Assembly: GCA_017427065.1 (NCBI GenBank)
Contig: JAFRTL010000015.1
Location: forward strand, 1 to 62,080
Direction: 5' to 3'
Length of the DNA: 62,080 nucleotides
From: Bacteroidaceae bacterium
Lineage (GTDB): Bacteria > Bacteroidota > Bacteroidia > Bacteroidales > Bacteroidaceae
Below, piece by piece: positions 583 to 22,308 of the stretch (position 1 is its first letter; each line of letters opens with the position of its first letter). The notes under the pieces are model-generated. The model made no database searches and had not been told where the DNA came from. It was given only the letters and a program-made list of their open reading frames with translations. The translations under genes and the position numbers were made by a program.

Positions 583-2934
583 TTATTCGTTTTTCAAAGA
601 ATCTACAGGATTGGCATGGGCAATCTTGAGGCAGTTCAATACCACGACTACTAAAACAATGGCCAGCACTACCAATGCCCCGCCAATGAAATAGAGTGGG
701 TGTAGCGTCACCTTCTCAGCAAACTGCTCCAGCCATTTGCCTGCCATATAGTAGGCCGCAGCCATGGCCACGATGGCCATAACGATGGAGAGCTTCTGGA
801 TGTCCCAGGCAAAGATGCCCAGAATGTCTCTTGTGGTGGCACCGTTAATCTTGCGTATGGCCATTTCCTTGCTGCGCCTTTGACTTTCGTCACGAATGAA
901 GCCTATCAGTCCCAGCATGGCGATGAGCAGGCTGAAGATGGCTCCCAGCACCAGCGTGTTCCGCATTTTCTTGCTGTCGGTGTACGCATCCCGGATGGAA
1001 TCCTCGTAAGAGATGAGGTTGATTTCTTTTCCTTCCAGGGCATCGGTCAAAGCTTTCTTCACCTTCTGCAGGGTGGCTTCGTCGGTGTTATTAAGTTTGA
1101 AGAAGATGTGTGGCATCCAGTTGTCCATGCTGCCTATCTCCCCATAGAACAGGGCACTAGGTCGCTCGTCCACACCCGTCAGATTGCCTATCAGGTAGCT
1201 CTTGTAAACACCAGCGATGGTGAACACTGGCTGTACCCCGTTTCGGTCATGTCCGGTCATCTGTATCTGCTTGCCCACAGCCCCGTCGCTCCAGTCGGTA
1301 AATTCTTTCATCTTCTCCACAAACTTTTCATCCACAGCCACTTCTGAAGAATCACGCGGAGCACGGCCCTCTAAGAACTTGATGTCTAAAAGGTCATAGA
1401 AAGTGTCAGTACACTCCATCTGGTCGGCTATGTTGAAGAGATCCTTGTCGTCACCTGGTAGAAAGATGTTATTACCGTTGGAACCTTGGAAAGCCAGATT
1501 ATAGCTGGCAGCCACACCCTTTACTTCAGGAAGATTCTGCAAGGTGCTTGCGGCACGTACTTGTGCCTGACGGTCACCATCAAACAGATCGATATAGTAG
1601 AGGTTGTCGTAGTTATAGCCAGGATTGCTGTGCGCCACCTTATTATATTGTTGCCCTATGATAAGCATCATCACCACCAGGAACACGTTGATAAGCACCT
1701 GTGTGCCCAGCAGTCCGAGCTTCCATTTGCGTGAGTGCTCCGTATAGTTTTTCAGCGCCTCATACACGGGGATGCGCATATAGAGATGGGCTGGCACCAC
1801 GATAGAGATAAACAACACCAAGGCGATAACCACTGCGATGGCTATGATGCTTTGAGGCACCAACAGCGTGGTGAATGGCACTCCCAGCAGGTTCTCCACC
1901 AGACTTCTACCTGCAAATATCAGTAGGGCAGCCAGTGCCAATGCCAATGTCAGGTGCAGCAAAGCCTCACGTGACAGCATGCCGTAGATATGCTTACTCT
2001 CTGCTCCATAGCACTTTCGCACTCCCACTTCCCTAGAGCGCTTCACCATCGATGAGATTACGATAAGGATATAGTTCAAGAGGCTGATGATAAGCAACAG
2101 AGCTGCTACAATGGAGAGCAGGATGATCTGGCTCTTCACCTCAGGATCGGAGGTGTGCATCTTGTCGAAAGGAGAGAGGAAATACCAAAGCGTAGTACCA
2201 TTTTTCTCCAACTGCTCCAGCGGTTGGTGAGCCTCCTGCATCTTGCGTATGGCATCTTTCAGACCGTTGGGATCTACACCGGGAGCCAGTTTCACATAGC
2301 CCTTGTAGCGATCGTTACCCAACCAGTTTTCTGTGCTCTGCTTACCATAGGTATCCATAGAGAGCAGTATGTCATAATCCAAAGTGCCGTTTTTGGGGAA
2401 GTCTTCATACACACCCTCGATAGTTAGTTTGAGTCCTTCCATCGTGGTATTGGCTATCTGCTTACCAATGACGGAAGAGTAATCGCCAGGCGAGGTGACC
2501 AGCTTGTCAGCAAAGCTGCGACTCACCATCAGTGTGCCGAACTTACCCAAAGCCTTTACAGGGTCGCCAGCTAAGATAGGGCGATTGAACACCTCGAAGA
2601 AGCAGGTGTCAGCACACACCAGCGTGCCAGTGATCTTGTTGCCATCCTCGTCCAGATAGGTGTCTTCGTTGAATACAAAGGTTGTACGCGTAGCACTTTC
2701 CACGCCTGGCACTTCGGCCTTGAAACCAGGAGCAGTGGCACCGCTCACCTGCCCATAGTCGTGCGATTCCCCCTGCTGGCTGTAACCCGTTTTAATGATG
2801 TAAACCCGATCCACATCTTGATAGAAGCTATCATAGCTAAGTTCGAAAAACACTTTGGCTATCAGTACGATGCCTACGGCCATTCCAATGCCCAAGGAAA
2901 ATACCTTGATCCAAATATCACTTTTTGTTTTCAT
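583..2934 (-). CDS. FtsX/MacB-family ABC permease (permease F)
   Basis: This 783-residue type VII ABC permease is probably inner-membrane. An N-terminal membrane segment (about 10-30) is followed by a MacB-type periplasmic domain (about 35-265). Membrane segments at about 268-295, 325-342 and 362-380 form the first FtsX unit. A fourth segment (405-428) opens a second periplasmic domain, and three more near the C-terminus close the second FtsX unit. The cytoplasmic ATPase-contact motifs are REVGVRKCYGA and KEMAIRKINGA. It ends in NPVDSLKNE like the permease at 11249-13612, so these two form a subgroup. It is the last gene of the sigma-54-linked transporter cluster, 14 bases after the small exported protein. 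Substrate unknown. It has no ATPase of its own and probably uses the one at 10543-11223. Confidence 0.9.
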   Translation of the reverse strand: MKTKSDIWIKVFSLGIGMAVGIVLIAKVFFELSYDSFYQDVDRVYIIKTGYSQQGESHDYGQVSGATAPGFKAEVPGVESATRTTFVFNEDTYLDEDGNKITGTLVCADTCFFEVFNRPILAGDPVKALGKFGTLMVSRSFADKLVTSPGDYSSVIGKQIANTTMEGLKLTIEGVYEDFPKNGTLDYDILLSMDTYGKQSTENWLGNDRYKGYVKLAPGVDPNGLKDAIRKMQEAHQPLEQLEKNGTTLWYFLSPFDKMHTSDPEVKSQIILLSIVAALLLIISLLNYILIVISSMVKRSREVGVRKCYGAESKHIYGMLSREALLHLTLALALAALLIFAGRSLVENLLGVPFTTLLVPQSIIAIAVVIALVLFISIVVPAHLYMRIPVYEALKNYTEHSRKWKLGLLGTQVLINVFLVVMMLIIGQQYNKVAHSNPGYNYDNLYYIDLFDGDRQAQVRAASTLQNLPEVKGVAASYNLAFQGSNGNNIFLPGDDKDLFNIADQMECTDTFYDLLDIKFLEGRAPRDSSEVAVDEKFVEKMKEFTDWSDGAVGKQIQMTGHDRNGVQPVFTIAGVYKSYLIGNLTGVDERPSALFYGEIGSMDNWMPHIFFKLNNTDEATLQKVKKALTDALEGKEINLISYEDSIRDAYTDSKKMRNTLVLGAIFSLLIAMLGLIGFIRDESQRRSKEMAIRKINGATTRDILGIFAWDIQKLSIVMAIVAMAAAYYMAGKWLEQFAEKVTLHPLYFIGGALVVLAIVLVVVVLNCLKIAHANPVDSLKNE

Positions 2935-2948
2935 TGTTGTCCATTTAA

Positions 2949-3305
2949 TCAGTCATTATTGATGTCTTTCCATTCTATAATTCGGTCTTTATCCTCGTTG
3001 CAGACCACATGTGCTGTATGCTTCTCTTTTGTACCATCTGTTGAGACAATATAATAGCTCACATTGGCAGAGAAGCGCACCTCGCCATTTTCCTTATAGT
3101 CTTCGCATAAATACTTACTGCCGAATTCTACTTTTTCGCCATCAACAATACTGGCAGAAACATGGCTTATCACAGCTTCTTCAAAATTCCTGTTTTCCCT
3201 GTTGCCATGACCAGGCAAATTGATATGGCCACTTTGTGCATACAAGATAAGCAGCACAACGGCTATGCAAGCGGCAATCTTTATAAATTTAGTTTTTTTC
3301 ATCAT
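2949..3305 (-). CDS. Small exported protein of unknown function
   Basis: This 118-residue protein starts with a short basic segment and one hydrophobic stretch (about 8-23), an uncleaved anchor or signal peptide. The remaining ~95 residues are polar and probably lie in the periplasm. Two cysteines are present in the mature part (in YLCEDY and VVCNED) and could form a disulfide. I do not recognise a family. It lies between two permease genes of the efflux cluster, 14 bases before permease F, so an accessory role is plausible by position only. It is preceded by a 120-bp gap containing a strong hairpin. Confidence 0.7.
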   Translation of the reverse strand: MMKKTKFIKIAACIAVVLLILYAQSGHINLPGHGNRENRNFEEAVISHVSASIVDGEKVEFGSKYLCEDYKENGEVRFSANVSYYIVSTDGTKEKHTAHVVCNEDKDRIIEWKDINND

Positions 3306-3398
3306 GTGTCATTCTTTAGTTTATTGATTCTTGTTAAATACTTTACAGTTACTCTTTCTTCAATTAAGTCCTTCAGGGCTTTTCTTCATCGTCGCTCG

Positions 3399-3423
3399 GA
3401 ATAGAAAGCGGGGCTTTCTATTC
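3399..3423 (-). promoter_or_regulatory. Intra-operon hairpin after permease E
   Basis: GAATAGAAAGC (3399-3409) and GCTTTCTATTC (3413-3423) form a perfect 11-bp stem with a 3-base loop. It begins three bases beyond the stop codon of the permease at 3426. On the transcribed strand no T-tract follows, so it fits an mRNA processing or 3'-end stabilising hairpin better than an intrinsic terminator. It separates the first ten structural genes from the last two. Confidence 0.6.
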
Positions 3424-3425
3424 TC

Positions 3426-5810
3426 TCACTCCTTCTTCAGTTCCGTAGCAGGATTGGTCCTTGCTGCTTTTAAGGTTTGCCATAGCACGGTACCAAAGGC
3501 GATGACCAGCGAGATGATGACTGCTACGGCAAATATCCAGCCATAACCCTCGATGCGATAGGCAAAGCGTTCCAGATAGATGCGAGATGCCCAGATGGCC
3601 AGAGGAATACCAATCAGGCAGGCAAGTCCCACCATAATCATATAACTATGAACATTTCTCCAAGTTTCCTTTGTCACATCCGATCCGAATACTTTGCGAA
3701 TGGCTATCTGCTTGGTATTCTCATCGGCAAAATAGGTACTCATAGCCAGCAGACCCAGCAGGGAGATGAGGACGGCTAGTACGGCAAAGAGTTCCACCAG
3801 TCTTAGGGTGCGGCGTTCCAGCTCCAATTGCTGGTAGTTCAGATCTCTCATGAATCCACAGAGCCACGCAGCTTCTTCAGTGCCCGACTGCTCCAACCTG
3901 AAGTCTCGATAGGCCTTACGGATGGCCTCGTCATAAGACTTGTCCTCACCCGTAGTGCCGATGAGCAGGCAGTTGGCATAGTTCAACTCTTCTGCCTTGG
4001 TCACTATTATGCCCCCGTTGGGGTTAATCTCTTTTGAGGAGGCCGCACTGGTGGGGAAATCATGTACGATTCCACCGATAAACTCAGGTTGAGCACCGTT
4101 CACACTTATTCTTCGGGGGAATACTGTAGTAGTATCAGATACACCTGCCGCACGGAAAGCCGATTCGCTCATCCATAGTGAATGTACTAGCGGATGGTCG
4201 AAGTCTTCCTCCACCTCCAGTCCCAATAGCTGGAAATAAGTGGAGTCGCAAAGAATGACAGGCATATCTACATGGTGCTCCTCGTCCACCTTTACGCCCA
4301 CGGTCATGTTTATTAGACCGGGTATGCCGCGTCCCATGCCTACCTTAGTAACAAACGGAAGTGCACTCACCTTGTCCAGAAATAGCTTCGCCATGTCATA
4401 GTCACGTGATGAATATTCTATGTAATAGAGGTTGTCCACTGCCGCATGGGTAGGTCGTGAGAGCATGTGCTGCATCTGCATTTCCATGACCAAGGCTATG
4501 GCAATGAGAAACACTGCCAGCACATTCTGCACTACGATGAAGACACGGCTCAACACCATCTTGTTTTTCCGACGGAAAGATCCCTTAATCACGTCAATGG
4601 GTTGGTAGCGTGAAGCCATATAGGCAGGGAGCAGTCCGCAGATGATACCTAAAATCAGAATCACAGCCAGGTAAGCAAGGATATACCCCGGAGTCATCAT
4701 GAACGAGAGTCCTACACCTAGTTCATCTAATCCGTATGAAACCAGTTCTGGGTCAATGGTAGATACCAGGTTACTCATCATAGGTGCCAGCAGGTAGGCC
4801 AGTACCAGTGCAACTATAAAACACATGGCGGTGAAAGCCACAGACTCTACGATGTATTTCCAGAGAATGGCGTTTCGATCGGCTCCTAAGAGTCGACGGG
4901 TAGCCATCTCCTTGGCACGCTTTCCAGTAAGGGCAAGGTTCAGGTTCACATAGTTGAAGATGGCTGATAGGAGTAGCAGAAGTACCACCACGGTAAGGAG
5001 GTTTAGCATCTGCTTGTTTCCAGAACGGAAGAGTCCCGTGGGACTTCCTTCAAAGAAGAAGGCCTCGTCCATGCGGTAGGGGCGCCATTTGTCTACACGT
5101 TCAGCTCGCCAAGTCTCATCGTAGTTCTTGTGCAGTAAGGCCTTCGCTTTGGCTTCTACGGCAGTAAGGTCTGCATCTGGGCGCACGCGGAACCAGGTGG
5201 CATAGTTGCCTATGCTGTTGAACGCCTTGCTCTGGTTGGCTGCCCAAGTGTCTGAGATGTGGGTGATGACGTCACAAGGCAAGAAGAAGGAATTCTCAAA
5301 ATCGGCATATACGCCCTTGATAGTGCGTTCCGACTCGTTCACCTTGAGGATGCTGCCCACCAGACTCTCCCCATTTATGGCCAGGCGCCTTGCCAACGAC
5401 TGGCTGATGAGGACATCGGTCTTTCCTACAAAATCCTGTACATTTCCTTCTATGATTTGGTACTGTGGGAAAACTTCGAAGAATTCCGCATCGGCCTCCA
5501 TGCCTGTTCCTCTGACCAGATCTTCACCTATCTGAATGGTAGGTTGCCACAGTAAGGCCATATGCGTCACAGCCTCTACTTCAGGGATATTCATTTCCAC
5601 TTCTTCCTTGTCCCAATAGGTGAGTCCTAGGAAATCGTCGCTTCCCAGTACGAAGGTCCGTTTCCACTCAGGCGACTCATGTGCCACTTCATTCTGCTGC
5701 ACCACATAGCTGCCTATCAAGATCACAAACGCTAAGCTCACCGCAAGCCCCACTGCCTCGATGGCAGTGTAGAGCTTGTTGCGGGATAGGAATTTCAGGT
5801 AACTTTTCAT
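3426..5810 (-). CDS. FtsX/MacB-family ABC permease (permease E)
   Basis: This 794-residue permease has the same fused double-FtsX layout as its paralogues. The coupling motifs are AKEMATRRLLGA and TKQIAIRKVFGS. It starts MKSYLKFLSRNKLYT and ends TNPATELKKE, shared almost exactly with permeases D (5840) and C (8137); the DNA coding these ends is also nearly the same. It follows permease D after a 29-base gap and probably assembles with the ATPase at 10543. Substrate unknown. The start is fixed by the conserved N-terminus of the three paralogues. Confidence 0.9.
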   Translation of the reverse strand: MKSYLKFLSRNKLYTAIEAVGLAVSLAFVILIGSYVVQQNEVAHESPEWKRTFVLGSDDFLGLTYWDKEEVEMNIPEVEAVTHMALLWQPTIQIGEDLVRGTGMEADAEFFEVFPQYQIIEGNVQDFVGKTDVLISQSLARRLAINGESLVGSILKVNESERTIKGVYADFENSFFLPCDVITHISDTWAANQSKAFNSIGNYATWFRVRPDADLTAVEAKAKALLHKNYDETWRAERVDKWRPYRMDEAFFFEGSPTGLFRSGNKQMLNLLTVVVLLLLLSAIFNYVNLNLALTGKRAKEMATRRLLGADRNAILWKYIVESVAFTAMCFIVALVLAYLLAPMMSNLVSTIDPELVSYGLDELGVGLSFMMTPGYILAYLAVILILGIICGLLPAYMASRYQPIDVIKGSFRRKNKMVLSRVFIVVQNVLAVFLIAIALVMEMQMQHMLSRPTHAAVDNLYYIEYSSRDYDMAKLFLDKVSALPFVTKVGMGRGIPGLINMTVGVKVDEEHHVDMPVILCDSTYFQLLGLEVEEDFDHPLVHSLWMSESAFRAAGVSDTTTVFPRRISVNGAQPEFIGGIVHDFPTSAASSKEINPNGGIIVTKAEELNYANCLLIGTTGEDKSYDEAIRKAYRDFRLEQSGTEEAAWLCGFMRDLNYQQLELERRTLRLVELFAVLAVLISLLGLLAMSTYFADENTKQIAIRKVFGSDVTKETWRNVHSYMIMVGLACLIGIPLAIWASRIYLERFAYRIEGYGWIFAVAVIISLVIAFGTVLWQTLKAARTNPATELKKE

Positions 5811-5839
5811 ATCATTTTGTTCTTTTTATGCATTTATTC

Positions 5840-8134: not shown

Positions 8135-8136
8135 AT

Positions 8137-10518
8137 TTACTCTTTTTTTAGTTCTATAGCAGGGTTGGTTCTTGCAGCCTTCAGCGTCTGCCAAAGGACA
8201 GAGGCGAAAGCGATGGTTATGGAAATAAAGGCTGCTACCACAAATACCCAACTGTAGTTTTCGATGCGGTAAGCAAATTGGCTTAAATACTTTTCAGCTA
8301 TCCAGGTGGCGACTGCTATACCGATAATAACGGCGATTCCTACTAAAACCATATAGCCCTTTATTGTTCTCCAAATCTCATGAGTGATATCGCTGCCAAA
8401 TACTTTTCTTATAGCTATAATTTTGGTGTTCTCGACAGAGTAGTATGCACTCATCGCCAACAGGCCTAATAATGAAATAAGCACTGCCAAGATCATAAAA
8501 AGCTCAATAAGACGAAGGGTCATCTTCTCTGGTACCAATTGCTCGTTCAGGACATCAACTATATAACCAGCTTGTGAGGGCTCTACTTTAGTTCCATCTT
8601 TCTCGATACAGAAATCGGAATATGCCTTTAAGATGGCATCTGCCGCCTCTTTTTCATCCCCATCGACTTCTATCATCACTCCGTTTCCGTACAAGATCTT
8701 ATCTGCGGTGGAAACTACAACTGCTGAATTTTCCGCAGGATTCTCGGAAGAGGCATCTGCGGTAGGAATGTCTTCATACACACCGCCAACATATTCAGTC
8801 GCAGCACCGTTAATCCTGAAACGGGGGGCGTAGTAGGATAGTGTAGAATCGCTGAGTTGTATCTCATCGGCCAGATGCTTTGACATCCATACCGATCCTT
8901 CACGAGGCGTTCCATAGTCTTTGTTTATCTTAAGTCCAAGCATGTCGAAGTACTCTGGTGTGCAGATAATTAGTTGTGTATTTGCGGTCTTGTCTTCTGG
9001 GGTAGAGAACCCAAATCCCATGCTCATCTGACCAGGGAAACCAGCACCATAAGCAACTCGCTTTACCTGTGGAATCTGGGTCAAACGATCAACTAATGGC
9101 TTAATTTCAGAATAATCCCGAGCAGTAAAAGTCAAACGGAAAAGCCCCTCACTGCGGGCATTCAATGGACGGTTCATCATATGTGTGAGTTGTACGCTCA
9201 TCAGGATGGCCATGGCAATGAGCAATACAGAGATGGCATTCTGGAAAATAATGAATATTTTGCTGAATACCATTTTGCTGCGCCTGCAAAATGTACCGCG
9301 TACCACGTCAATAGGCTCATAGCGGGAAGCAATGAGAGCAGGAGCGATACCAACGATAGTGCCAATCATAATGATAGAGAAGACATAAAATGCAAAAGTC
9401 CCAGTCGTCAGATTCAGATTTATTTGGACATAAGCCCAAGTATTGCCAACATCGGAAACATCCATAAGTAGCTTATTCATCATCGGAAGAAGAAACCATG
9501 CCAATAATAAAGCAAGGGCAAAGCATACAGCTGTAAAGGCTATAGATTCAATAATATATTTGAGCATTATGCCTCTTTGCGAAGCTCCCAGCAGACGTCG
9601 GGTAGCCATTTCTTTTGCACGTCTTCCAGAGAGAGCCAGATTTAAATTGACATAGTTGAAGATGGCTGATATGAGAAGGAGCAGAACTACTACAGTCAGC
9701 ATTTGAAGCAGAGACTTGTTTCCCCGTTTAAAGAAATACTGTTGGTTGCTGAAGAATAATTCTGGAAGCGAATAGATTGGGAAATCTTGAATCCAAGTCT
9801 TGCCATAATTGGCGATACATATGTCGTGAATATGATCGGCCAGTGTTTCCCGGTCTGTTCCTTCTGAAACTTTGATTAACGATATATACTGGCCGATAGT
9901 ACTGAAAGCACGCAACTCTCCTGTGGAATAGAATGGATCAAACTCTGCATTGGCTAGAATACCTACATCGGGCATCAGTGTGTTTCGGAAATCTTTGTAA
10001 ATGCCACAAACAGTCAGCTCTTGTCCAGAAAAATAGGTTTCAGCACGAAGATGTGTTCCGATAACGTCTGTCCCGACTATGTTTGCTATCTGCTTTGCAA
10101 AAGATTCGCTCACAAGACAATATCCTTTGAGGGCAAACTCATCCAAAGACCCTTCAATGAGTTGGTAGTTAGGGAATACCTCAAAGAACTCTTTATCTAC
10201 CAGAGTCATTGAGTTTGTTAATTTATTGTCGCCTATAGAGACAATAGCCCCTTCTTCCGTATTGCTGATTCGGCACACAGTTTCAGCTTCTGGCAACTTT
10301 GAATCAAATTCTGCTTTATCCCACCAAGACAATGCCACAAAACTCGAGCTGCCTACGCCGTACACCCTTTCACTGATAGGATTCTCATAGGAGATTCTAT
10401 ACTGTTGCCAGACATAGTTACCGATAAGGATAACGAATGCTATAGAAACCACAAGCCCCACCGCCTCTATGGCGGTGTAGAGCTTGTTGCGGGATAGGAA
10501 TTTCAGGTAGGATTTCAT
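8137..10518 (-). CDS. FtsX/MacB-family ABC permease (permease C)
   Basis: This 793-residue permease is first in the C-D-E tandem set and follows the ATPase gene by 24 bases. The N-terminus MKSYLKFLSRNKLYT and C-terminus TNPAIELKKE match its paralogues. Coupling motifs are AKEMATRRLLGA and TKIIAIRKVFGS. Eight membrane segments are expected from two fused MacB/FtsX units, so one chain could serve as a complete permease for an ATPase dimer. The periplasmic parts have diverged far more than the ends, which fits different substrates or partners. Confidence 0.9.
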   Translation of the reverse strand: MKSYLKFLSRNKLYTAIEAVGLVVSIAFVILIGNYVWQQYRISYENPISERVYGVGSSSFVALSWWDKAEFDSKLPEAETVCRISNTEEGAIVSIGDNKLTNSMTLVDKEFFEVFPNYQLIEGSLDEFALKGYCLVSESFAKQIANIVGTDVIGTHLRAETYFSGQELTVCGIYKDFRNTLMPDVGILANAEFDPFYSTGELRAFSTIGQYISLIKVSEGTDRETLADHIHDICIANYGKTWIQDFPIYSLPELFFSNQQYFFKRGNKSLLQMLTVVVLLLLISAIFNYVNLNLALSGRRAKEMATRRLLGASQRGIMLKYIIESIAFTAVCFALALLLAWFLLPMMNKLLMDVSDVGNTWAYVQINLNLTTGTFAFYVFSIIMIGTIVGIAPALIASRYEPIDVVRGTFCRRSKMVFSKIFIIFQNAISVLLIAMAILMSVQLTHMMNRPLNARSEGLFRLTFTARDYSEIKPLVDRLTQIPQVKRVAYGAGFPGQMSMGFGFSTPEDKTANTQLIICTPEYFDMLGLKINKDYGTPREGSVWMSKHLADEIQLSDSTLSYYAPRFRINGAATEYVGGVYEDIPTADASSENPAENSAVVVSTADKILYGNGVMIEVDGDEKEAADAILKAYSDFCIEKDGTKVEPSQAGYIVDVLNEQLVPEKMTLRLIELFMILAVLISLLGLLAMSAYYSVENTKIIAIRKVFGSDITHEIWRTIKGYMVLVGIAVIIGIAVATWIAEKYLSQFAYRIENYSWVFVVAAFISITIAFASVLWQTLKAARTNPAIELKKE

Positions 10519-13627: not shown

Positions 13628-15964
13628 TTATTCTTTTTTCAATACTTCGGCAGGATTCGTCCTTGTCGCTTTCAGATAGTGTGATAGCACAACTATGGCA
13701 CACAGTGCTGCCACAACAATGAGTGTCACGGCAAATATACCTACAGAGAATCCCACTCGATGCGAGAACTGTTGCAAGTAGTACCGTGCGATCAGCCAGC
13801 CAATTGGCGCAGCAATAACGTAGCAAATGGCCACCGTCCGTAGATAAAGCCATAGACCCTCCGAAGTAATCTGAGGTATCTCTGCCCCCAATACGCGCTT
13901 TATAGAAATCTCTGTCCGCTTGTACTGCACATCCATTAGCACCTGACCCCAAATGCCCACGAGAGAGAGTAGCACTGCCAGCAGTGAGAACAGCCACACA
14001 GCCAGGCGCAGTCGCTCTTCTCCACTATAGAGGTTTTTACCGATTGCATCATAGAACTGTAATTCGTAAGGCATAGTTGGGTCCATTTCCGTCAGGAAGG
14101 ATTGAATCTTTTCAATCGCTGCCAGTCGGTCAGCACCTTCGGGGAACCGAATATAAGCGAAAGGCATCGAGTGTCCTCGTTTGGTATGCACTTGGAAGGC
14201 TACGGGAGAATCCGCTTTACGCATCGATGTAATATTTACATTATTGATGAAGCCAACAATCGGAGCTCCGTCACCGAATTCATCCTCATAAACCATCAAC
14301 TCGGCGCCTCGTGTTTTCAAGTCCTGCGTGAAGAGAATCGGTCCGAACTCTCCTTCATTGAAACTACGTCCTTCCATAACTTCCAATCCAAGAACCTGAG
14401 GCAAATTCCAGCTGCAAAAGATCATGCTCATCGACACCTGTCCATCGCCAAAATCAGCGCTCTGTGTGGTATAGGCATCTGCCCCGCCAATAAGATCATT
14501 TGCGTAAGCTACGTCTTCCACTTCAGGAAGTGTGCATAAGCGTTCCCGCAGCCAGTCTGCTTTTTCCCTGCTGTTCTCGCCGCCGATATTCACAACGGCC
14601 AGGTTATTCTTGTTGAATCCACAAGGATACTCCTTCATGAAGCGACTCTGCTTCTGCACGAAGAGGACAAAGATTAGCAGGGCAATGGAAACTACAAACT
14701 GCACACCTACAAGTACCGAGCGCAGCGTCTTTCCTGACTGTGACAGCCCATAATTGCCCCGAAGGATAAGTGCAGGCTGACCAGAGGTCGAATAGATGCC
14801 TGGCCAAATACCTGCAATGATGCCCGTGGCCAGCGCAACTGTTCCTACGAAGATAATAAGTTCCCAATGCTTGCTAATTGCAAATGCTTGCATCAGTACA
14901 CCTTGCGTAGCCAGTGCCTCCGATACTGGCTTCAGTAGGAGGGCTGCCATAGTAAAGGCGCAGATACACCAGATGACGGCCTCTGTCACCACCAGTGTCC
15001 GCAAGCGTGTCGTTGAAGATCCCAGAATCTTCTGCAGGTTGACATTCTTTATTCTGAGAGGTGTCAGAGCTACATAGAAGTTCGTGAAATTGATGAGACC
15101 AATAGTCAGAATCAAGATAGCGATAGCAATCAGTAAAAGTAGCTGTGAGCGACTACCGCTCTTGTAGATGTTCCCCTCGTTCCGGAAATAAATGCTTGTG
15201 AGAGGCACCAACTTGATGGGCGTGAGCCAATCTCCATGAGGCGCAAAGTCAAAATGGCTGTTGAAATCATTGGCCACGGTCTCTGCATTGTTAGCATCGT
15301 CCAACAGCAGATAGCAGACAAAATTGGCTCCGCCATAAGACCCTTTATTGATGTCTCCGATTGTCAAATACAGATCATTCCCGAGTTGCGTGTTTGTAGG
15401 GAAATCTTCATAAACACCAGTCACAGTGACTTCCCGAGGCAATTCCATATACTTGGCATCTGTCTTCAGTAGTTTGCCAACTGCCGATTCTCCAGAGAAC
15501 AGATTTTCTGCTAACGATTGGGGTATGATGACTGAATTAGGGCCTTCCAGTGCGTGAGAGTCTCCCTCCAACATCTTGATGCCAAATACATCGATAAATC
15601 GTTCCGATACGAAAATAATATCTCGCTTGTAACCGACAGGAGTACCACCGTCCTCTGCGGCGGAGAAATAGATTTCTCCCAAGAAAGGCATAAAAGTACA
15701 GCCAGCTTCAATGTGTACTGACGATCCGATGATGTCATCGGCAAAGCCTCTCGGAAGTATATTGCGGAACATAGATTCATCGGCCTTTTTGTCAGCTCTG
15801 AACACACGCTTCGCTGTGGGATGGCACTTATCAAACGACAGCTCATAGTCGGCCTGCAGGAAGATTAGTGCGAACGCTATGAAAGCGGCCACCAGCCCTG
15901 TGAAATTCAGCACTACTGCTATTGGGTATCGACGTATCAGGCTTTTGAGGTTCTTTATAATCAT
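13628..15964 (-). CDS. FtsX/MacB-family ABC permease (permease A)
   Basis: This 778-residue permease is first in the operon after the adaptor gene (30-base gap). The N-terminus MIIKNLKSLIRRYPIAVVLN leads into membrane helix 1. The first coupling motif is degenerate (IKNVNLQKILGS), the second is RTEISIKRVLGA, and the C-terminus is TNPAEVLKKE. The layout is the fused MacB/FtsX pair seen in the other five. Substrate unknown. Confidence 0.9.
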   Translation of the reverse strand: MIIKNLKSLIRRYPIAVVLNFTGLVAAFIAFALIFLQADYELSFDKCHPTAKRVFRADKKADESMFRNILPRGFADDIIGSSVHIEAGCTFMPFLGEIYFSAAEDGGTPVGYKRDIIFVSERFIDVFGIKMLEGDSHALEGPNSVIIPQSLAENLFSGESAVGKLLKTDAKYMELPREVTVTGVYEDFPTNTQLGNDLYLTIGDINKGSYGGANFVCYLLLDDANNAETVANDFNSHFDFAPHGDWLTPIKLVPLTSIYFRNEGNIYKSGSRSQLLLLIAIAILILTIGLINFTNFYVALTPLRIKNVNLQKILGSSTTRLRTLVVTEAVIWCICAFTMAALLLKPVSEALATQGVLMQAFAISKHWELIIFVGTVALATGIIAGIWPGIYSTSGQPALILRGNYGLSQSGKTLRSVLVGVQFVVSIALLIFVLFVQKQSRFMKEYPCGFNKNNLAVVNIGGENSREKADWLRERLCTLPEVEDVAYANDLIGGADAYTTQSADFGDGQVSMSMIFCSWNLPQVLGLEVMEGRSFNEGEFGPILFTQDLKTRGAELMVYEDEFGDGAPIVGFINNVNITSMRKADSPVAFQVHTKRGHSMPFAYIRFPEGADRLAAIEKIQSFLTEMDPTMPYELQFYDAIGKNLYSGEERLRLAVWLFSLLAVLLSLVGIWGQVLMDVQYKRTEISIKRVLGAEIPQITSEGLWLYLRTVAICYVIAAPIGWLIARYYLQQFSHRVGFSVGIFAVTLIVVAALCAIVVLSHYLKATRTNPAEVLKKE

Positions 15965-15994
15965 ATATTATTGTATTATTGGGTTTAAGTAATA

Positions 15995-17251
15995 TTAAAA
16001 CACTAATACATCACTATCCCCATAAGTCTCATACCCAGAGGTTATGACTTTCTCTCCTGGCTCCAGGCCTTCCAGCACTTCGTAGTACTGCGGATTCTGG
16101 CGTCCGATGCGGATTTCACGCTTCACGGCTCTGTTGCCATCTTTATTCACTACATAGATCCACTTGCCACCTGTCTGCTGGTAGAAGGAACCGCGAGGGA
16201 TGAGGATGGCTTCTTCGGGCTGTCCCAGTTGCAGATTGAGGTAGTAGGTCTGTCCGCTGCGGATGTTGTCAGGCTGCTCGCCATCAAACTTGAAGTCGGC
16301 CTTGAACTTGCCATCACGTACCTCTGGATAGACTTTGCGAATGAGGGTGGAGTAGGTATCTCCCTGGCGTTCGAAAGTGGCCTCCAGACCCTCTACTACG
16401 CGATCGATGTAGTGCTCGTCTATCTGTGCTTCTACCTTATAGGTACCCACGGAGTTGATCTGTCCTATCTTGGTGCCGCTGGCGATGCTCTGACCAAGCA
16501 CCACATCCAGTAGGCCAAGCTCTCCATCGATGGGAGCCTTCACGATGAGGTTGCTCTTGCGCTTGCGAATCATCTGCATATTGAGCTGCATATTCTCTAA
16601 GCTCTCCTCCATGCGGTCTATCTGCGTGCCACGATAGAGGCTGTCTTGCTTGGAGCGCTCACGGATAAGTTCGTATTTCTGCTGTGCCAGTCGGTAGTCT
16701 TCCTCTGCTTTCAGGTAGTCCTCCTTGGCGATGAGCTTATCCTCATAGAGTGCCTTTTGCTGCTCGTAGGTGCGACGCAGGCGTTCTACCTGCGTGCCAT
16801 ATTCCAGCACGTTCTGGCGCACGTCGAGCTTCTGTTGCTCCATCTGGATTTGTGTGTTGCGCAGGATGTTCTCCTTCTCTGCCAGCTCGGCTTCGGAGTT
16901 CAGGATGGAGAGGTCCAGATTATCATTGCTCAGCACCAGGATGGCATCGCCAGCCTTCACGGCAGAGCCTTCTTCGATGAGGATGGTCTGCACGATGCCA
17001 CCTTCCTGCGGACTCAGTTGGATGGTGGTCATGGGTTGTACTCGTCCGCTGATGCGGATGTAATCGTTGAACTCTCCCCGCTCTGTGGTAGATACCACCA
17101 CTGAATCTTTGTCCACACGTAGGGTCTTGTTGTTGGGCCTTGCTATCAGGTAGGCGATGAATGCCAGGAGCAGTGCGCCACCCCAGTAAGGTAAAGCTTT
17201 CTTGGTGAATGCCACCTTCCAGCCTGTCTGTTTTTCTAGAATCTTATCCAT
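15995..17251 (-). CDS. HlyD/MacA-family periplasmic adaptor
   Basis: This 418-residue membrane fusion protein links an inner-membrane transporter to an outer-membrane channel. One membrane helix (about 23-40) anchors it. A split lipoyl/barrel-sandwich domain flanks a long helical hairpin: the first half is near residues 70-110 (GGIVQTILIEEGSAVKAGD) and the hairpin is about 120-235, rich in Gln, Glu, Lys and Arg heptads. The second lipoyl half (NLIVKAPIDGELGLLDV) and beta-barrel and membrane-proximal domains follow. The gene starts 2 bases after the tolC-type gene stops, so the two are co-expressed. Together they build a tripartite pump with the permeases and ATPase. Confidence 0.92.
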   Translation of the reverse strand: MDKILEKQTGWKVAFTKKALPYWGGALLLAFIAYLIARPNNKTLRVDKDSVVVSTTERGEFNDYIRISGRVQPMTTIQLSPQEGGIVQTILIEEGSAVKAGDAILVLSNDNLDLSILNSEAELAEKENILRNTQIQMEQQKLDVRQNVLEYGTQVERLRRTYEQQKALYEDKLIAKEDYLKAEEDYRLAQQKYELIRERSKQDSLYRGTQIDRMEESLENMQLNMQMIRKRKSNLIVKAPIDGELGLLDVVLGQSIASGTKIGQINSVGTYKVEAQIDEHYIDRVVEGLEATFERQGDTYSTLIRKVYPEVRDGKFKADFKFDGEQPDNIRSGQTYYLNLQLGQPEEAILIPRGSFYQQTGGKWIYVVNKDGNRAVKREIRIGRQNPQYYEVLEGLEPGEKVITSGYETYGDSDVLVF

Positions 17252-17253
17252 AG

Positions 17254-18597
17254 TTATTGATCTATATATGCTATACCATTATAATATCTTACTACTGCCT
17301 GCTTGATGAGGTATTTGTAGAGCGAGTTCATCTCGTCGGCCTGTGCCTTGAGGTAGTTGTTGCTTGCTGTCTGAAACTCCAGTGGTGAGATGAGGCCTTG
17401 CTCCAATCTCTTGCAGTTGAGTTCGTAAGCTTCTTCTTGCACCTCTGCCTTGCGCTGAGCCTGCAGATGGGCCGTGGCACTGCCATCGCGATCCAGAATG
17501 GCACGACGTACCTCCGACTCCACATCACGTCGTTTCTGCTCCAGCTCCGCAGTAGCTTTCTTGTAGGCATTACGCTTCTTGGAGATATTGGAGGCTCTGC
17601 TCAGACGATCCCACAGAGGGATGGAGACAGACATCTCTACGTATTCACCACGGTTGTTGCGAAACTGGTTGCCAAATGAGGCAGTGTGTGCGCCCTCATA
17701 GGTGTAGTAGCTGGTGTTCCATCCAGCATAGATGCCTATGGTGGGCAGCAGCTGCCATTTAGCAGTGTTCAGTTCCCTGCGGGCATTCAGTTGTTGCCAA
17801 GTGGCTTTCTGTACCTCTGGATTGTTTGCCAAAGCATAGCCCACTGTACTCTCAGCATCGGCTTCAGGCAAGGTAGGCGTAGCCTCCACTTCTGTCTCTA
17901 TCAGCAGCTCTTCCTCCTCGGGCCAGAACATCAGGTCGGAGAGAATCATCCGCTGATCCAGATACATGTTGCGCGTGTTGGTAAGGTCGTACTGCCTATC
18001 AGCCAGGTCGGCTTCCATCTGCACCACATCGGCATGTCCCTTCAGTCCCAGTTCCTCTTGGCGACGTGCCAGTTGCAGGGAAGTTTCTGCAGCAGCTACT
18101 TGCTCCTCATACACGGCCGTCAGACGCTGGTAATACGCCACGTTGTAGAAGGCTTCCATCACTGCCAGGCAGATATCGGCCTCGGCCTGCTGCTCTTCCG
18201 ACTTGGCGATGAGCATGCCCGTCTTGGAGATTTTATAGTTGTTCACTGCCTTGAAACCATCGAACAGGTCGTAACCCACACTGATGCTGTAGTTGTTGTG
18301 AAACGACGTGGTCGTGAAATAGGTATTGGTCTGCGGGTCTATGCTACGTCCGAAGTTGTAGTAGGCATAGGTCTGCGCATTGATGGCTGGGGTGAACAGC
18401 GTGAGGGCAGCATCACGGCGGGCAATGCGGGCATCACCTTTGGCTGCCTCTTGAATCCGCATCTTGGTGGAGTTGGAGATGGCATACTGCATGCAGTCGT
18501 GTAGTGTCATTTCCTTTCCCGTGTCTACGATAGATTGTCCGTAGGCATTGGCTCCAGCAGCCATTAAAAATAACGATAAGTAAAATGTTTTTATCAT
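17254..18597 (-). CDS. TolC-family outer membrane efflux protein
   Basis: This 447-residue outer-membrane channel has a signal peptide of about 20 residues (MIKTFYLSLFLMAAGANAYG). Two OEP repeats of long alpha-helical hairpins rich in Ala, Gln and Glu follow, with aromatic beta-strand segments such as YAYYNFGRSIDPQTNTYF. It is the first gene of the transport operon. The ATG lies about 24 bases downstream of the transcription start predicted from the sigma-54 promoter at 18632-18647, and the adaptor gene follows after 2 bases. It provides the exit duct for the tripartite system. Confidence 0.93.
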   Translation of the reverse strand: MIKTFYLSLFLMAAGANAYGQSIVDTGKEMTLHDCMQYAISNSTKMRIQEAAKGDARIARRDAALTLFTPAINAQTYAYYNFGRSIDPQTNTYFTTTSFHNNYSISVGYDLFDGFKAVNNYKISKTGMLIAKSEEQQAEADICLAVMEAFYNVAYYQRLTAVYEEQVAAAETSLQLARRQEELGLKGHADVVQMEADLADRQYDLTNTRNMYLDQRMILSDLMFWPEEEELLIETEVEATPTLPEADAESTVGYALANNPEVQKATWQQLNARRELNTAKWQLLPTIGIYAGWNTSYYTYEGAHTASFGNQFRNNRGEYVEMSVSIPLWDRLSRASNISKKRNAYKKATAELEQKRRDVESEVRRAILDRDGSATAHLQAQRKAEVQEEAYELNCKRLEQGLISPLEFQTASNNYLKAQADEMNSLYKYLIKQAVVRYYNGIAYIDQ

Positions 18598-18631
18598 CTT
18601 GTCAAAAAATTTAATCTCATGCCAAACTTAC

Positions 18632-18647
18632 CGCATTTATCGTGCCA
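18632..18647 (-). promoter_or_regulatory. Sigma-54 promoter of the efflux operon
   Basis: On the minus strand this reads TGGCACGATAAATGCG. The consensus is TGGCACG-N4-TTGCW; GG and GC are exactly 10 bases apart, the full TGGCACG is present, and the main deviation is A for T in the first -12 position. Transcription would begin near 18621, leaving a short leader before tolC at 18597. The genes immediately upstream encode an NtrC-type activator and its kinase. Confidence 0.8.
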
Positions 18648-18692
18648 AACTTGTAAGATGTTGATTTTTAGTGATTTGCTTAAAACAGAAAA

Positions 18693-18740
18693 GTGTAAAA
18701 TGTTGTAAAACACTTTACACCTTTTACACTTTACTTTACA
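18693..18740. promoter_or_regulatory. Candidate activator-binding half-sites upstream of tolC
   Basis: GTGTAAA occurs at 18693-18699 and its inverse TTTACAC at 18714-18720 and 18723-18729, with TTTACA at 18735-18740. TGTAAA-N4-TTTACA (18704-18719) is a compact palindrome. The same GTGTAAA/TTTACAC words form two clean palindromes upstream of the regulator gene (21116-21155). The position, about 50-100 bases upstream of a sigma-54 promoter, fits an enhancer for the adjacent NtrC-type activator. Confidence 0.6.
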
Positions 18741-18750
18741 GTTTTGACGC

Positions 18751-19632
18751 TTATCTGAATCGTAATTCAAAGAGGGTTTTCGATGCATCACTTTGCAGCA
18801 GTTCGATGCTGCCATTGTGGTTGCGCATGATTTGGCGGGAGATGCTGAGGCCTATTCCTGAACCTTCTTTCTTGGTGGTGAAGAAGGGGATGAAGATTTG
18901 CTCCTGACTGCTCAATGGGATGGGGGCCCCATCATTGGATACTTGGATAATGACTTCATCGTCTTTGTCCATCTTAGCCATGATATGGATGTGCTTGGCT
19001 CCTGCTTGGAGGGCATTCTTTATTAGGTTGATGAAGATCTGTGAAATCTGTCCTTCATCGGCATAAATCATTAAATCGGCATCCATGGGATGATAGGTAC
19101 ATACGGCCCCACAAGAGGCCACATATTCGCTGTTGAGAGCGATGACTTGGTTCATCAATTCTTGCAGGTCCAAAGCTTTACGTATGGGTTTAGCCACACC
19201 GCTCAGCTGGCGATAGGTCTGCACAAACTCAATCAGATTTTTAGAACTGTCGGAGATGGTTTCCAAACCGGCTTTGATATCTAATTCACTATGCCCGTCT
19301 TCATCCAACGACTTGGCCAAAGCATCGCTCAATGAGGATATAGGGGATACAGTATTCATGATTTCATGGGTGAGTACACGTATCAACTTGGTCCACGAGT
19401 CTTGTTCATGGGCTTGCCTTTGTCGCTCGAAAATGGTACGGATACGGTTCAGTGTGCGGTTGAATTTGTTCTTTTCTTGAAAGCGGAAATTGAGTTCTCC
19501 ATCTTCGAGCGCATCCATCATGTAGGCCACCTTTTTAATATCTTTATGGCGGGTATAAAGTACTGCAATCACTGCTACCACAATGGCAACGATGACTGCC
19601 GTTCCTATGATATGCCAGATGGTGAAGGTCAT
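18751..19632 (-). CDS. Sensor histidine kinase, NtrB/NtrY-like, without a periplasmic sensor domain
   Basis: This 293-residue kinase has one N-terminal membrane helix (about 7-27) and a short HAMP-like linker (about 30-70). The phosphoacceptor helix is LTHEIMNTVSPISSL, and the ATPase domain carries the N box NLIKNALQAG and G box KKEGSGIGLSISRQIM. No extracytoplasmic, PAS or GAF domain is visible. The start overlaps the regulator gene by 4 bases (19629-19632), so translation is coupled. It presumably phosphorylates the sigma-54 activator encoded just upstream. The lack of a sensor suggests that it reads the membrane or a partner such as one of the permeases (inference). Confidence 0.9.
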   Translation of the reverse strand: MTFTIWHIIGTAVIVAIVVAVIAVLYTRHKDIKKVAYMMDALEDGELNFRFQEKNKFNRTLNRIRTIFERQRQAHEQDSWTKLIRVLTHEIMNTVSPISSLSDALAKSLDEDGHSELDIKAGLETISDSSKNLIEFVQTYRQLSGVAKPIRKALDLQELMNQVIALNSEYVASCGAVCTYHPMDADLMIYADEGQISQIFINLIKNALQAGAKHIHIMAKMDKDDEVIIQVSNDGAPIPLSSQEQIFIPFFTTKKEGSGIGLSISRQIMRNHNGSIELLQSDASKTLFELRFR

Positions 19633-21002
19633 AGGCCGTATTTCTTCAGTTTGGTGTAAAGGGTGGGACGACTGACTCCAAGCAGTTTGGCTGCTGCTGA
19701 GATATTTCCGCCAGTGCGCGTCATGGCATCGCGTACCAATCGTTCTTCGTCGGCTTCACTAATCGCTTTGATGGTACCAACGGACTTGAAGGTAACCGAC
19801 TGCTCTAATTGGATGTCCTTGGCGCTTAAAGTAGTTCCGTCTGAAAGGATTACTGCTTTCTCCATACAGTTTTGCAGTTCTCTGATATTACCTCCCCAAT
19901 GGTAGTTCTTCAGTATTTGGGCAGCACTTTCATCCAGTCCGATGAGAGGGCGATGGTATTTCTCGGCATAATGTTCCAGGAACATTTCTGCTAAAGGAAT
20001 GATGTCTTCACGTCGTTCTCTCAAAGGAGGCAGTGCGATGTGTACCGTATTGATGCGGTAATACAGGTCTTCACGGAACCGTCCTTCTTTCACGAGGGCT
20101 TCCAAATCCATGTTGGTGGCACAGATAAGACGGATGTTCACAGGCTTGGTTTCCGTACCACCTACGCGCACGATACTCCGGTTTTGGATGGCACGCAAGA
20201 GTTTGGCTTGTAAGTGAAGGGGGATATTACCTATTTCGTCCAAAAAGAGCGTGCTGCCTTCGGCTTGTTCGAACTTGCCTGCATGATCGGTATGGGCATC
20301 GGTGAAAGCACCTTTCACATGGCCGAAAAGTTCACTTTCAAACAGGGTTTCGGTAATGGCTCCAGCATCTACTGCCACCATAGGTTTTCCGTTACGGAGA
20401 CTATGGGCATGGATCTCTTGTGCTAGTATATCCTTGCCGGTTCCATTCTCACCGGTGATGAGAACGGTGGCATCGGTAGGCGCTATTTTGGTAAGTGTCT
20501 TTTGGATGGTTGCCATGACGGCAGTGGTTCCCCAGAACATCTGTGTTCTTGGAGAAGTGGCATCCATTGCTGTTGCGACAGATTTGGTACGGGCATCTCT
20601 TTGCAGTGCTTTACGGGCTTTATCTCTTGCTGCGGTCAGCACTTCTATGAGTTTCTCGTTCTTCCAAGGTTTCACGATAAAATCGAATGCTCCTCGTTTC
20701 ATTCCTTCCACCGCCAGTTGAATGTCGGCATAGGCCGTAAAGAGCACCACTTCTACGTTGGGTGCCATTTTCTTGAGTTCAGAGGTCCAATATAAGCCCT
20801 CATTCCCCGTATTGATGGAGGTATTGAAATTCATGTCGAGCAGCACCACATCTGGACGATATTGCTCCAATACTGTTACCAAGGAGGCTGGAGATGGGAG
20901 TGTCTTCACCTCGGCAAAGTACATGGGTAAGAGTATCTCCAGTGTCTTGCGGATACCGGCATTATCATCTACAATCAGTATTTTTCCAACTTTAGAAGTC
21001 AT
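19629..21002 (-). CDS. Sigma-54-dependent response regulator (NtrC family)
   Basis: This 457-residue activator has three domains. The receiver (about 7-125) has acidic pocket DDN, phospho-acceptor in VVLLDMNF and Lys in VKPWKN. The AAA+ domain (about 155-390) has Walker A GENGTGKD, the sigma-54-contact loop as GAFTDA rather than GAFTGA, Walker B TLFLDEIGNIP and an arginine-finger region. The Fis-type helix-turn-helix at the C-terminus is GGNISAAAKLLGVSRPTLY. It overlaps the kinase gene by 4 bases. A sigma-54-like promoter at 21044-21059 and palindromes at 21116-21155 suggest autoactivation, and the same motif lies before the efflux operon. Confidence 0.95.
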   Translation of the reverse strand: MTSKVGKILIVDDNAGIRKTLEILLPMYFAEVKTLPSPASLVTVLEQYRPDVVLLDMNFNTSINTGNEGLYWTSELKKMAPNVEVVLFTAYADIQLAVEGMKRGAFDFIVKPWKNEKLIEVLTAARDKARKALQRDARTKSVATAMDATSPRTQMFWGTTAVMATIQKTLTKIAPTDATVLITGENGTGKDILAQEIHAHSLRNGKPMVAVDAGAITETLFESELFGHVKGAFTDAHTDHAGKFEQAEGSTLFLDEIGNIPLHLQAKLLRAIQNRSIVRVGGTETKPVNIRLICATNMDLEALVKEGRFREDLYYRINTVHIALPPLRERREDIIPLAEMFLEHYAEKYHRPLIGLDESAAQILKNYHWGGNIRELQNCMEKAVILSDGTTLSAKDIQLEQSVTFKSVGTIKAISEADEERLVRDAMTRTGGNISAAAKLLGVSRPTLYTKLKKYGL

Positions 21003-21043
21003 CTTAGTTTTTATTTTACACCATACTTATTTTTTTACTCAGT

Positions 21044-21059
21044 AACAAGTTTCGTGCCA
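21044..21059 (-). promoter_or_regulatory. Sigma-54-like promoter of the regulator-kinase operon
   Basis: The minus strand reads TGGCACGAAACTTGTT. The -24 element TGGCACG is perfect and the spacing is right, but the -12 element is TTGTT instead of TTGCW. It lies 42 bases upstream of the regulator start. Taken with the palindromes at 21116-21155, it suggests autoregulation through sigma-54. The changed -12 base could make it weak or leaky. Confidence 0.65.
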
Positions 21060-21115
21060 TTCATTGTATGCTGCTGTATTTCAATCGTTTTTGGTTACAT
21101 TGTTCTTGAAAGAGA

Positions 21116-21155
21116 GTGTAAAGGGATTTTACAAAAGTGTAAAGTCATTTTACAC
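21116..21155. promoter_or_regulatory. Two tandem palindromes, candidate upstream activating sequence
   Basis: GTGTAAA-N5-TTTACAA (21116-21134) and GTGTAAA-N5-TTTACAC (21137-21155) are 19-bp palindromes offset by 21 bp, two helical turns, so two activator dimers would bind the same face. They lie about 60-110 bases upstream of the sigma-54-like promoter at 21044-21059. The second overlaps the 3' end of the metallophosphoesterase gene. Confidence 0.65.
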
Positions 21156-22308
21156 CTTTCTCTAGCGTGAACACGGTGATTTCGGGCCAAGCACCAAAGC
21201 GGAAGGGGAGGCCTACGAAGCCAATGCCGATGTTGACATAAAGCTGCTGGGTACCTTCTTGGTAGAGCCCGCCCCATTCGTCGTAGATGTATTGTGCGGG
21301 CGACCATCCGAAGAGTATGAACTGGGTGGCATGGGTATGACCAGAAAGCATGAGGTCGATGTCGGTATCGGGCAGTACTTCCTTACGCCAATGGGTAGGG
21401 TCGTGTGAGAGCAAGATTTGTGTCATCCCCTCAGTGCCACGCATGGCTTTGGGAAGGTCGGCTACCTGTGGAAAGGGGGGACGGCCTTCGTTCTCCACAC
21501 CGATGATGGCTATGCTGTCGGTTCCACGATGGAGGATGTCGTGCTCATTGCGTAGCATCTTCCATCCCATCTGTCGCTGAAGGTCGCAGAGACGGTCGGT
21601 ATCGCGGGCTTCGTCATTTTCTCCCTGCCAACGATAATAGCGTCCGTAATCGTGATTTCCTAAGATGGAGTAAACACCATCGGGAGCACGTAAGCCACTG
21701 AGTGCCTGTGAGAACTGCTCCAACTCGGAGGAGCGTTGATTCACTAAGTCGCCCGTGAAGAGGATCACATCGGCTTGCTGTGCATTGACTTGTTTTACCA
21801 GTTCGTCGAGCACATCGGGCATGCCTCGGAAACTGCCTGAATGGATGTCGGAAATCTGAACCATGCGATAGCCCTCGAAACTCTGTGGGAGAGAAGGGAT
21901 GTGCAGCGTGACTTCATGGACCACAAAGTGGCGTATGCCTTCTATGCGGGCGTAGAGGATCATGCAGAATGTACAGAGGGCGACGATACAGCCTGTCACT
22001 GTGAAGAATCGGTGGATGGGACGGAGGAGGTCACCAAGGAGGCCAAATAGCATGAAGAAGAACTTAGGAAAGCCAAAGGCGAGCATCAGGATACTGAGCC
22101 ATCCGATGGCGTCACTGCGTTCTGACATGGGGTTGGCACTTCCGATATACATCAACAGTATGAAGGCGGCGATAAGTGCGAAGGAGGGAAGCCACCAAAG
22201 GAGCTTCAGTCCCTTGCTCTTCACGCGACGGGTGATGTATCCCCAGAAGATATAGCTATCGGGTATCAGGAGTAGTAGGACGAATATGTAGGCGAAACGC
22301 TGTAACAT
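21145..22308 (-). CDS. Membrane metallophosphoesterase, YkuE-like
   Basis: This 387-residue protein has an N-terminal membrane part (about 4-120, four hydrophobic segments) followed by a calcineurin-like phosphoesterase domain. The metal-binding motifs are in order: ISDIHSGSF, GDLVNQ, GNHDYG, SHDPTHW and SGHTHATQ. Relatives include YkuE-type and UDP-diacylglucosamine-hydrolase-like enzymes, but the membrane-anchored type has no fixed substrate. The domain probably faces the periplasm or the cytoplasmic membrane surface. Its last codons overlap the putative enhancer of the downstream regulator gene. Confidence 0.88.
   Translation of the reverse strand: MLQRFAYIFVLLLLIPDSYIFWGYITRRVKSKGLKLLWWLPSFALIAAFILLMYIGSANPMSERSDAIGWLSILMLAFGFPKFFFMLFGLLGDLLRPIHRFFTVTGCIVALCTFCMILYARIEGIRHFVVHEVTLHIPSLPQSFEGYRMVQISDIHSGSFRGMPDVLDELVKQVNAQQADVILFTGDLVNQRSSELEQFSQALSGLRAPDGVYSILGNHDYGRYYRWQGENDEARDTDRLCDLQRQMGWKMLRNEHDILHRGTDSIAIIGVENEGRPPFPQVADLPKAMRGTEGMTQILLSHDPTHWRKEVLPDTDIDLMLSGHTHATQFILFGWSPAQYIYDEWGGLYQEGTQQLYVNIGIGFVGLPFRFGAWPEITVFTLEKGVK

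What the first reader, a model, noticed from the sequence alone, without database searches (positions are those of the whole stretch)
583..21160. Sigma-54-controlled tripartite export island with six fused FtsX permeases
Seen: twelve same-strand genes after gaps of mostly 2-30 bases encode regulator, kinase, TolC, adaptor, one ATPase, six about 780-residue double-FtsX permeases and a small exported protein. Sigma-54 promoters precede the first structural gene and the regulator gene. Known: MacAB-TolC and Bce-type systems use one or two permeases. Inference: a self-regulated envelope defence or export system in which several permeases share one channel and one energy source.
Basis: partly seen in the sequence, partly recalled or inferred. 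Interest (0 to 1): 0.78.

Follow-up and report, generated by a model that had tools for sequence, protein, structure and literature searches.

The report
One pump with swappable permease genes
In some gut Bacteroidales a three-part export pump with one motor gene is encoded beside a changeable row of membrane-gate genes that appear to have been swapped between species, so one machine may be refitted to handle different molecules; what it exports is not known.

Summary
In detail: twelve same-strand genes encode an NtrC-type regulator, kinase, TolC, adaptor, one ATPase, six double-FtsX permeases and a small anchored protein. In the window plus 18 relatives, TolC, adaptor and exactly one ATPase form a stable core (17 of 19 with regulator and kinase), while 1 to 7 permease genes vary in set and order. 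Single permeases look laterally exchanged: window P4 is 97% identical (87% at silent sites) to one in a relative whose regulator, kinase, TolC and adaptor match at 35-53% of silent sites. In one subset of permease families the gene ends are homogenised within a genome (silent-site identity 0.66 and 0.70, middle 0.35), as expected of cassettes recombining through shared ends. A sigma-54 site and an upstream palindrome are conserved before TolC (56 and 45 of 65) but not before the regulator (3 and 6 of 61). The P5 model is most like E. coli YbbP; ATPase and adaptor are nearest the darobactin exporter. Best reading: a DarBCD/MacB-like tripartite exporter with an exchangeable permease array, probably for envelope-active compounds. 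Shared ATPase use and substrates are inferred.

The parts
19629..21002 (-). RR: NtrC-type sigma-54-dependent response regulator
   Evidence: Pfam Response_reg, Sigma54_activat 1.7e-66, HTH_8; one of two strong PF00158 matches in the genome
18751..19632 (-). HK: histidine kinase, 293 aa, one N-terminal hydrophobic segment, no periplasmic domain seen
   Evidence: Pfam HATPase_c; membrane segment read by eye; longer relatives
18632..18647 (-). sigma-54 -24/-12 promoter before TolC
   Evidence: TGGCACN6TG upstream of TolC in 56 of 65 loci (window included), 0.2 expected
18704..18719 (-). TGTAAAN4TTTACA palindrome, likely RR binding site
   Evidence: within 2 mismatches in 45 of 65 loci, 2.4 expected; that the RR binds it is inferred
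21044..21059 (-). sigma-54-like site before RR
   Evidence: 1 mismatch; TGGCACN6TG in 3 of 61 loci
21137..21155 (-). GTGTAAAATGACTTTACAC palindrome before RR
   Evidence: read; inner spacing one base longer than the TolC-side palindrome
17254..18597 (-). TolC-type outer membrane channel
   Evidence: Pfam OEP 2.4e-49
15995..17251 (-). periplasmic adaptor (MFP), N-terminal hydrophobic anchor by eye
   Evidence: Pfam HlyD_3; NCBIfam best ABC_adapt_DarC 218.8 bits, cut-off 450
13628..15964 (-). P1, double-FtsX permease, orthogroup E
11249..13612 (-). P2, double-FtsX permease, orthogroup C
   Evidence: 84% 4-fold-site identity to G075
10543..11223 (-). single ABC ATPase
   Evidence: Pfam ABC_tran; NCBIfam best ABC_ATP_DarD 283.1 bits, cut-off 375; next best in genome 50% identical
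8137..10518 (-). P3, double-FtsX permease, alone in its group at 55% identity
5840..8134 (-). P4, double-FtsX permease, orthogroup D, apparently recently exchanged
   Evidence: 97% aa, 87% 4-fold identity to G075, RR/HK/TolC/adaptor 35-53%; 94.2% DNA block ending within about 150 bases of the gene ends
3426..5810 (-). P5, double-FtsX permease, orthogroup A
   Evidence: AlphaFold model pLDDT 83.5, best match YbbP
2949..3305 (-). SP, 118-aa small protein with N-terminal hydrophobic segment
   Evidence: no Pfam match; 65% identical homologues between adaptor and first permease in G013, G027, G029; weak cystatin/NTF2-like model
583..2934 (-). P6, double-FtsX permease, orthogroup B

Best explanation
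A sigma-54-controlled tripartite ABC exporter of the MacB/DarBCD/YbbAP kind whose permease is interchangeable. Each ~780-residue permease is a fused pseudo-dimer (YbbP-like) that could take two copies of the one ATPase at its two coupling segments and dock on the common adaptor and TolC channel; different periplasmic domains would choose different substrates. The kinase, in which no periplasmic sensor domain is seen, would sense membrane stress or the working permease and phosphorylate the NtrC-type regulator, which switches on the TolC-to-P6 genes through sigma-54. The permease genes behave as cassettes: in the MKSYLKFL-type families (among them P3, P4, P5) near-common 5' and 3' ends would let genes recombine into, out of and along the array and between species, adapting the pump to changing envelope-active compounds such as antimicrobial peptides or bacteriocins. 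Shown by sequence: anatomy, conserved promoter and palindrome, one ATPase per array, variable set and order, permease-specific silent-site similarity between species, homogenised ends in that subset. Inferred: one transcript, sharing of ATPase and channel by all permeases, substrate choice by the periplasmic domains, RR binding to the palindrome, kinase signal, recombination as the cause of the homogenised ends, toxin defence.
Against: No experiment. The common ends are seen in one subset of families only; B, C and E (P6, P2, P1) have other 5' ends, yet C is among the exchanged genes. The ATPase also shows excess silent-site similarity in 22 of 153 pairs, so the core is not purely vertical; P2 and the ATPase form one shared block with G075. 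End homogenisation is not consistent in 9 more distant arrays (no cross-genome control there). The middles also show a slight same-genome excess (0.347 against 0.328, 1 of 300 shuffles reached it), so a small part of the end effect may be base composition. Genome pairs and loci in these counts are related, not independent. Nothing tested links the system to a toxin, and G925's missing ATPase lies 20 kb beyond the fetched stretch on the same strand, so a longer array there is not excluded.
Confidence: 0.6

Rival explanations
1. Only the permease beside the ATPase (orthogroup C or F slot) forms the pump; the others are sensors, spare genes or users of other ATPases.
For: 17 of 19 clusters have C or F immediately before the ATPase (exceptions G065 and G080; read); in G072 F is the only permease.
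Against: The coupling segments are conserved over 58 permeases of many families; the own genome, 83% complete, shows no second close ATPase (best 50%); the downstream permeases are mostly open frames and are shared between species; in G080 another permease takes the slot and a C start lies at the far end of the array.
Confidence: 0.2
2. Exporter of the cell's own products (peptide or lipid), one permease per product, like DarBCD for darobactin.
For: Nearest named ATPase and adaptor are DarD and DarC; SP lies in the array.
Against: No peptide-modification gene among the 26 window proteins scanned by Pfam, the twelve genes and 14 on one side of them (small precursor ORFs not searched); SP is in 1 of 19 clusters.
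Confidence: 0.2
3. Envelope housekeeping: lipoprotein or lipid extraction like LolCDE or YbbAP-TesA.
For: Fold matches to YbbP and LolE.
Against: Linked TolC and sigma-54 promoter; variable, apparently exchanged permeases are unlike housekeeping (inference).
Confidence: 0.1
4. The mosaic arrays are partly assembly chimeras of metagenome contigs.
For: The loci are nearly all labelled as MAGs or uncultured bins; junctions between cassettes are similar.
Against: Longest exact match between ends of different permeases of one array is 51 bases (medians 23 and 20, 38 pairs); the shared blocks listed are 82-98% identical, not identical; many bins share the same families; single-contig genomes of more distant Bacteroidia also hold several double permeases (G439, G373, G474).
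Confidence: 0.08

Closest known systems
Darobactin exporter DarBCD (NCBIfam NF038008, NF038010, NF038007)
   Same: Separate ATPase, adaptor and ~777-position double permease; best named match for ATPase and adaptor; described as a tripartite efflux pump, and exporter genes raise darobactin tolerance (PMC11559228, passages).
   Different: One permease; beside RiPP genes; the window proteins scanned score below the DarB, DarC and DarD cut-offs.
YbbAP-TesA (E. coli)
   Same: Pseudo-dimeric duplicated permease with a separate ATPase; best fold match of P5.
   Different: Partner is the hydrolase TesA, not adaptor and TolC; single permease.
MacAB-TolC
   Same: Adaptor, TolC, FtsX/MacB_PCD domains.
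   Different: MacB fuses ATPase and one permease half; here the ATPase is separate, the permease duplicated, and several per ATPase.
VarACDEF of Vibrio cholerae
   Same: Tripartite MacB-like pump with two permease genes and one separate ATPase (PMC5595328, passages).
   Different: Single-length 4-TM subunits; LysR-type regulator; no variable array described in the passages seen.
ADOP duplicated permeases (TIGR03434)
   Same: Duplicated architecture; best-scoring NCBIfam profile for the permeases scanned (150-177 bits).
   Different: Cut-off 622 bits not reached.
BceAB-BceRS
   Different: 10-TM permease, no adaptor or TolC, OmpR-type regulator (all recalled).

Membership tests
FtsX/MacB-type (type VII) ABC permeases | FtsX and MacB_PCD domains above curated cut-off | tested here: met
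   six of six permeases
FtsX/MacB-type (type VII) ABC permeases | type VII fold | tested here: met
DarBCD darobactin exporter | NCBIfam equivalog cut-offs for DarB, DarC, DarD | tested here: not met
   DarD 283 of 375, DarC 219 of 450, DarB at most 57 of 700 in the four permeases scanned (P1, P4, P5, P6)
DarBCD darobactin exporter | linked RiPP precursor and radical SAM enzyme | tested here: inconclusive
   no radical SAM match among 26 window proteins scanned; the side beyond base 1 is not held and small precursor ORFs were not searched
MacAB-TolC | ATPase fused to permease in one chain | tested here: not met
   ATPase is a separate 226-aa gene
MacAB-TolC | adaptor and TolC linked | tested here: met
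ADOP permeases | TIGR03434 cut-off 622 bits | tested here: not met
   150-177 bits in the four of six permeases scanned
Sigma-54 (NtrC-type) regulons | AAA+ sigma-54 activator, rpoN in genome, -24/-12 promoter | tested here: met
   binding and activity not tested
Bce-type flux-sensing modules | permease relays the signal to the kinase | not testable with these tools
   only the lack of a visible sensor domain was read
Known anti-phage systems | PADLOC system models | tested here: inconclusive
   10 of 12 proteins scanned: matches only for the ATPase and the regulator, to models of other ATPases and AAA+/receiver proteins

The most novel reading that the evidence does not exclude
A modular exporter in which one motor, adaptor and channel serve a recombining library of permease cassettes: homogenised gene ends act as recombination handles, so lineages acquire and reorder substrate specificities by horizontal cassette exchange under a single sigma-54 promoter, a transporter counterpart of cassette-based diversification.
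Probability: 0.4. Interest if true: 0.82.

Novelty: new variant of a known kind. Interest (0 to 1): 0.62.

Why it matters
If permeases are plug-in specificity parts, a bacterium could gain tolerance or export of a new compound by acquiring a single ~2.4-kb gene, without a new ATPase, channel or promoter. It would offer a ready set of natural swaps to map which part of a type VII permease binds substrate, and a clue to how gut Bacteroidales compete. Adaptors of this family are common in Bacteroidia (56 of 395 sampled genomes at E<=1e-90), and of 20 such clusters fetched 10 have an ATPase after the adaptor and at least two double permeases. Searches of the held library listed no paper whose title or abstract describes such arrays; papers of many subscription journals are not held.
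Full report
What is there. The window is a whole contig (62,080 bases) of a 2.5-Mb, 83% complete genome; the closest adaptor relatives in named records are uncultured Bacteroidales, many from ruminant stomachs and rumen (titles). On the minus strand, 21002 to 583, twelve genes follow each other: NtrC-type regulator, kinase, TolC, adaptor, P1, P2, ATPase, P3, P4, P5, small protein SP, P6. Six of six permeases carry FtsX and MacB_PCD domains above cut-off.

Relatives. An adaptor search in species genomes confirmed 345 relatives, of which the best 80 loci were returned. Where a locus reaches far enough, regulator, kinase, TolC and adaptor usually follow in this order; in five loci (L052, L098, L108, L111, L118) regulator and kinase lie on the opposite strand. 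Of 25 of these genomes searched, 22 have one adaptor match at E<=1e-60, three have two or more. I fetched longer stretches for 18 of the 25, those whose contig runs on far enough past the adaptor.

The array varies. With the window there are 19 clusters. Each array has exactly one ATPase gene and 1 to 7 permease frames of at least 450 codons; G065's only one is 492 codons, C and D in G066 are broken, and G080 and G081 run off the contig inside a further permease. Regulator and kinase were found in 17 of 19: G067's contig ends in TolC, G065 shows none upstream, and in G080 they are divergent. At 55% identity the permeases fall into groups A (P5), B (P6), C (P2), D (P4), E (P1), F, G, H, L and singletons including P3; groups A to H occur at most once per cluster (A in 16, B 14, C 13, D 13, E 7, F 7, G 5, H 4 of 19). 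Order is not kept: A precedes B in 6 clusters and follows it in 7; A precedes D in 9 and follows in 3. C or F stands directly before the ATPase in 17 of 19.

Exchange. At fourfold-degenerate sites the window and G075 agree at 43, 35, 50 and 53% in RR, HK, TolC and adaptor and 57% in the ATPase, but at 64% in P5, 84% in P2 and 87% in P4; DHOase agrees at 35% (59% aa). G080 and G081 agree at 85-98% in A, G, H and L against 55% in the core. Between window and G075, blocks of high DNA identity start and end within about 150 bases of gene ends; one block holds P2 and the ATPase, another P4, and P4 has different neighbours in the two species. Control: the excess over the mean of the other core genes exceeds 0.2 in 0 of 465 comparisons for RR, HK, TolC and adaptor, 22 of 153 for the ATPase and 26 of 383 for permeases; it exceeds 0.3 in 3 of 618 core comparisons (all ATPase) and 10 of 383 permease comparisons. 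Pairs are not independent, and most permease pairs show no excess.

Ends. In 41 genes of the families that begin like MKSYLKFL, silent-site identity between different families in one genome is 0.66 in the first 30 codons and 0.70 in the last 30, against 0.35 in the middle. With genome labels shuffled within families the means are 0.58, 0.46 and 0.33; 0, 0 and 1 of 300 shuffles reach the observed value. Spacers can be alike too: 26 bases identical twice in G075, 54 bases nearly so twice in G077; and the F gene of G082 carries the local 3' end. I read this as recombination or gene conversion through common ends. Families B, C and E have other 5' ends. In 9 more distant arrays the pattern is not consistent.

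Insertions. At junctions of some relatives lie reverse-strand genes: ORF6N-domain proteins in five clusters by Pfam and in G080 by eye, a ParDE pair in G062, a HicAB pair in G067; and a same-strand GIY-YIG gene in G063. The window has none.

Control region. TGGCACN6TG stands 29-74 bases before TolC in 56 of 65 loci (0.2 expected), and the palindrome TGTAAAN4TTTACA, within 2 mismatches, in 45 of 65 (2.4 expected), nearly all 101-162 bases before TolC; 38 have both. The 65 are those of 81 loci, window included, whose TolC start and at least 120 bases of upstream DNA were held; some are near-duplicates. Before the regulator the figures are 3 and 6 of 61. rpoN is present once, and two strong sigma-54 activators exist in the genome. 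The kinase has one hydrophobic segment and no visible sensor domain; in G013, G027 and G029, genomes of the same genus, it has two segments with a short loop and a further stretch that looks like PAS (by eye).

Known relatives. The nearest named families are DarD, DarC and, for permeases, ADOP and DarB, all below cut-off. A pump with two permease genes and one ATPase is known, VarACDEF (passages). Of 20 clusters fetched from the 56 genomes with a match, 10 have an ATPase after the adaptor and at least two double permeases, two of these with a second ATPase-like gene in the stretch; the other ten show one or none, no ATPase, or run off the contig. Searches of the held library listed no description of such arrays by title or abstract.

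Verdict. A real, conserved exporter of known kind with an unusual, exchangeable permease array. Function is inferred.

Noticed in passing
L121, L129, L135, L146, L149 (between permeases or after the ATPase): ORF6N-domain genes on the reverse strand at array junctions in five relatives (Pfam), a sixth in G080 by eye; also ParDE in L121 and HicAB in L131. Possibly small mobile or selfish inserts.
   Followed up: partly
G966, G925, G871, G912, G828, G953 (L209, L210, L211, L212, L214, L215): Adaptor-permease clusters without an ATPase in the fetched stretch, while ATPases 74-78% identical to the window's lie elsewhere in the genome.
   Followed up: partly
window 18751-19632: The kinase is shorter than its relatives in G013, G027 and G029 (open frames of 436-451 codons against 293 aa); its signal input is unclear.
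   Followed up: partly
L203 and L204: SP homologues lie beside a TonB-receptor-like outer membrane barrel gene (OMP_b-brl_3); in L203 this is inside a permease cluster.
   Followed up: partly
G069 (RUG13810; L063, L083, L084): Six adaptor matches, four of them full or nearly full length at 89-90% identity, where 22 of the 25 genomes searched have one: several copies or a mixed bin.
   Followed up: no
window 273-425: Short plus-strand frame (50 aa) that looks like the start of a DEDDh exonuclease (motif recalled), cut short just beyond the array end; possibly a remnant.
   Followed up: no
G000:C20:52642-56339: A longer double-FtsX frame (1034 aa; one of its two FtsX matches below cut-off) with an ATPase-like gene beside it that has one stop inside.
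   Followed up: no
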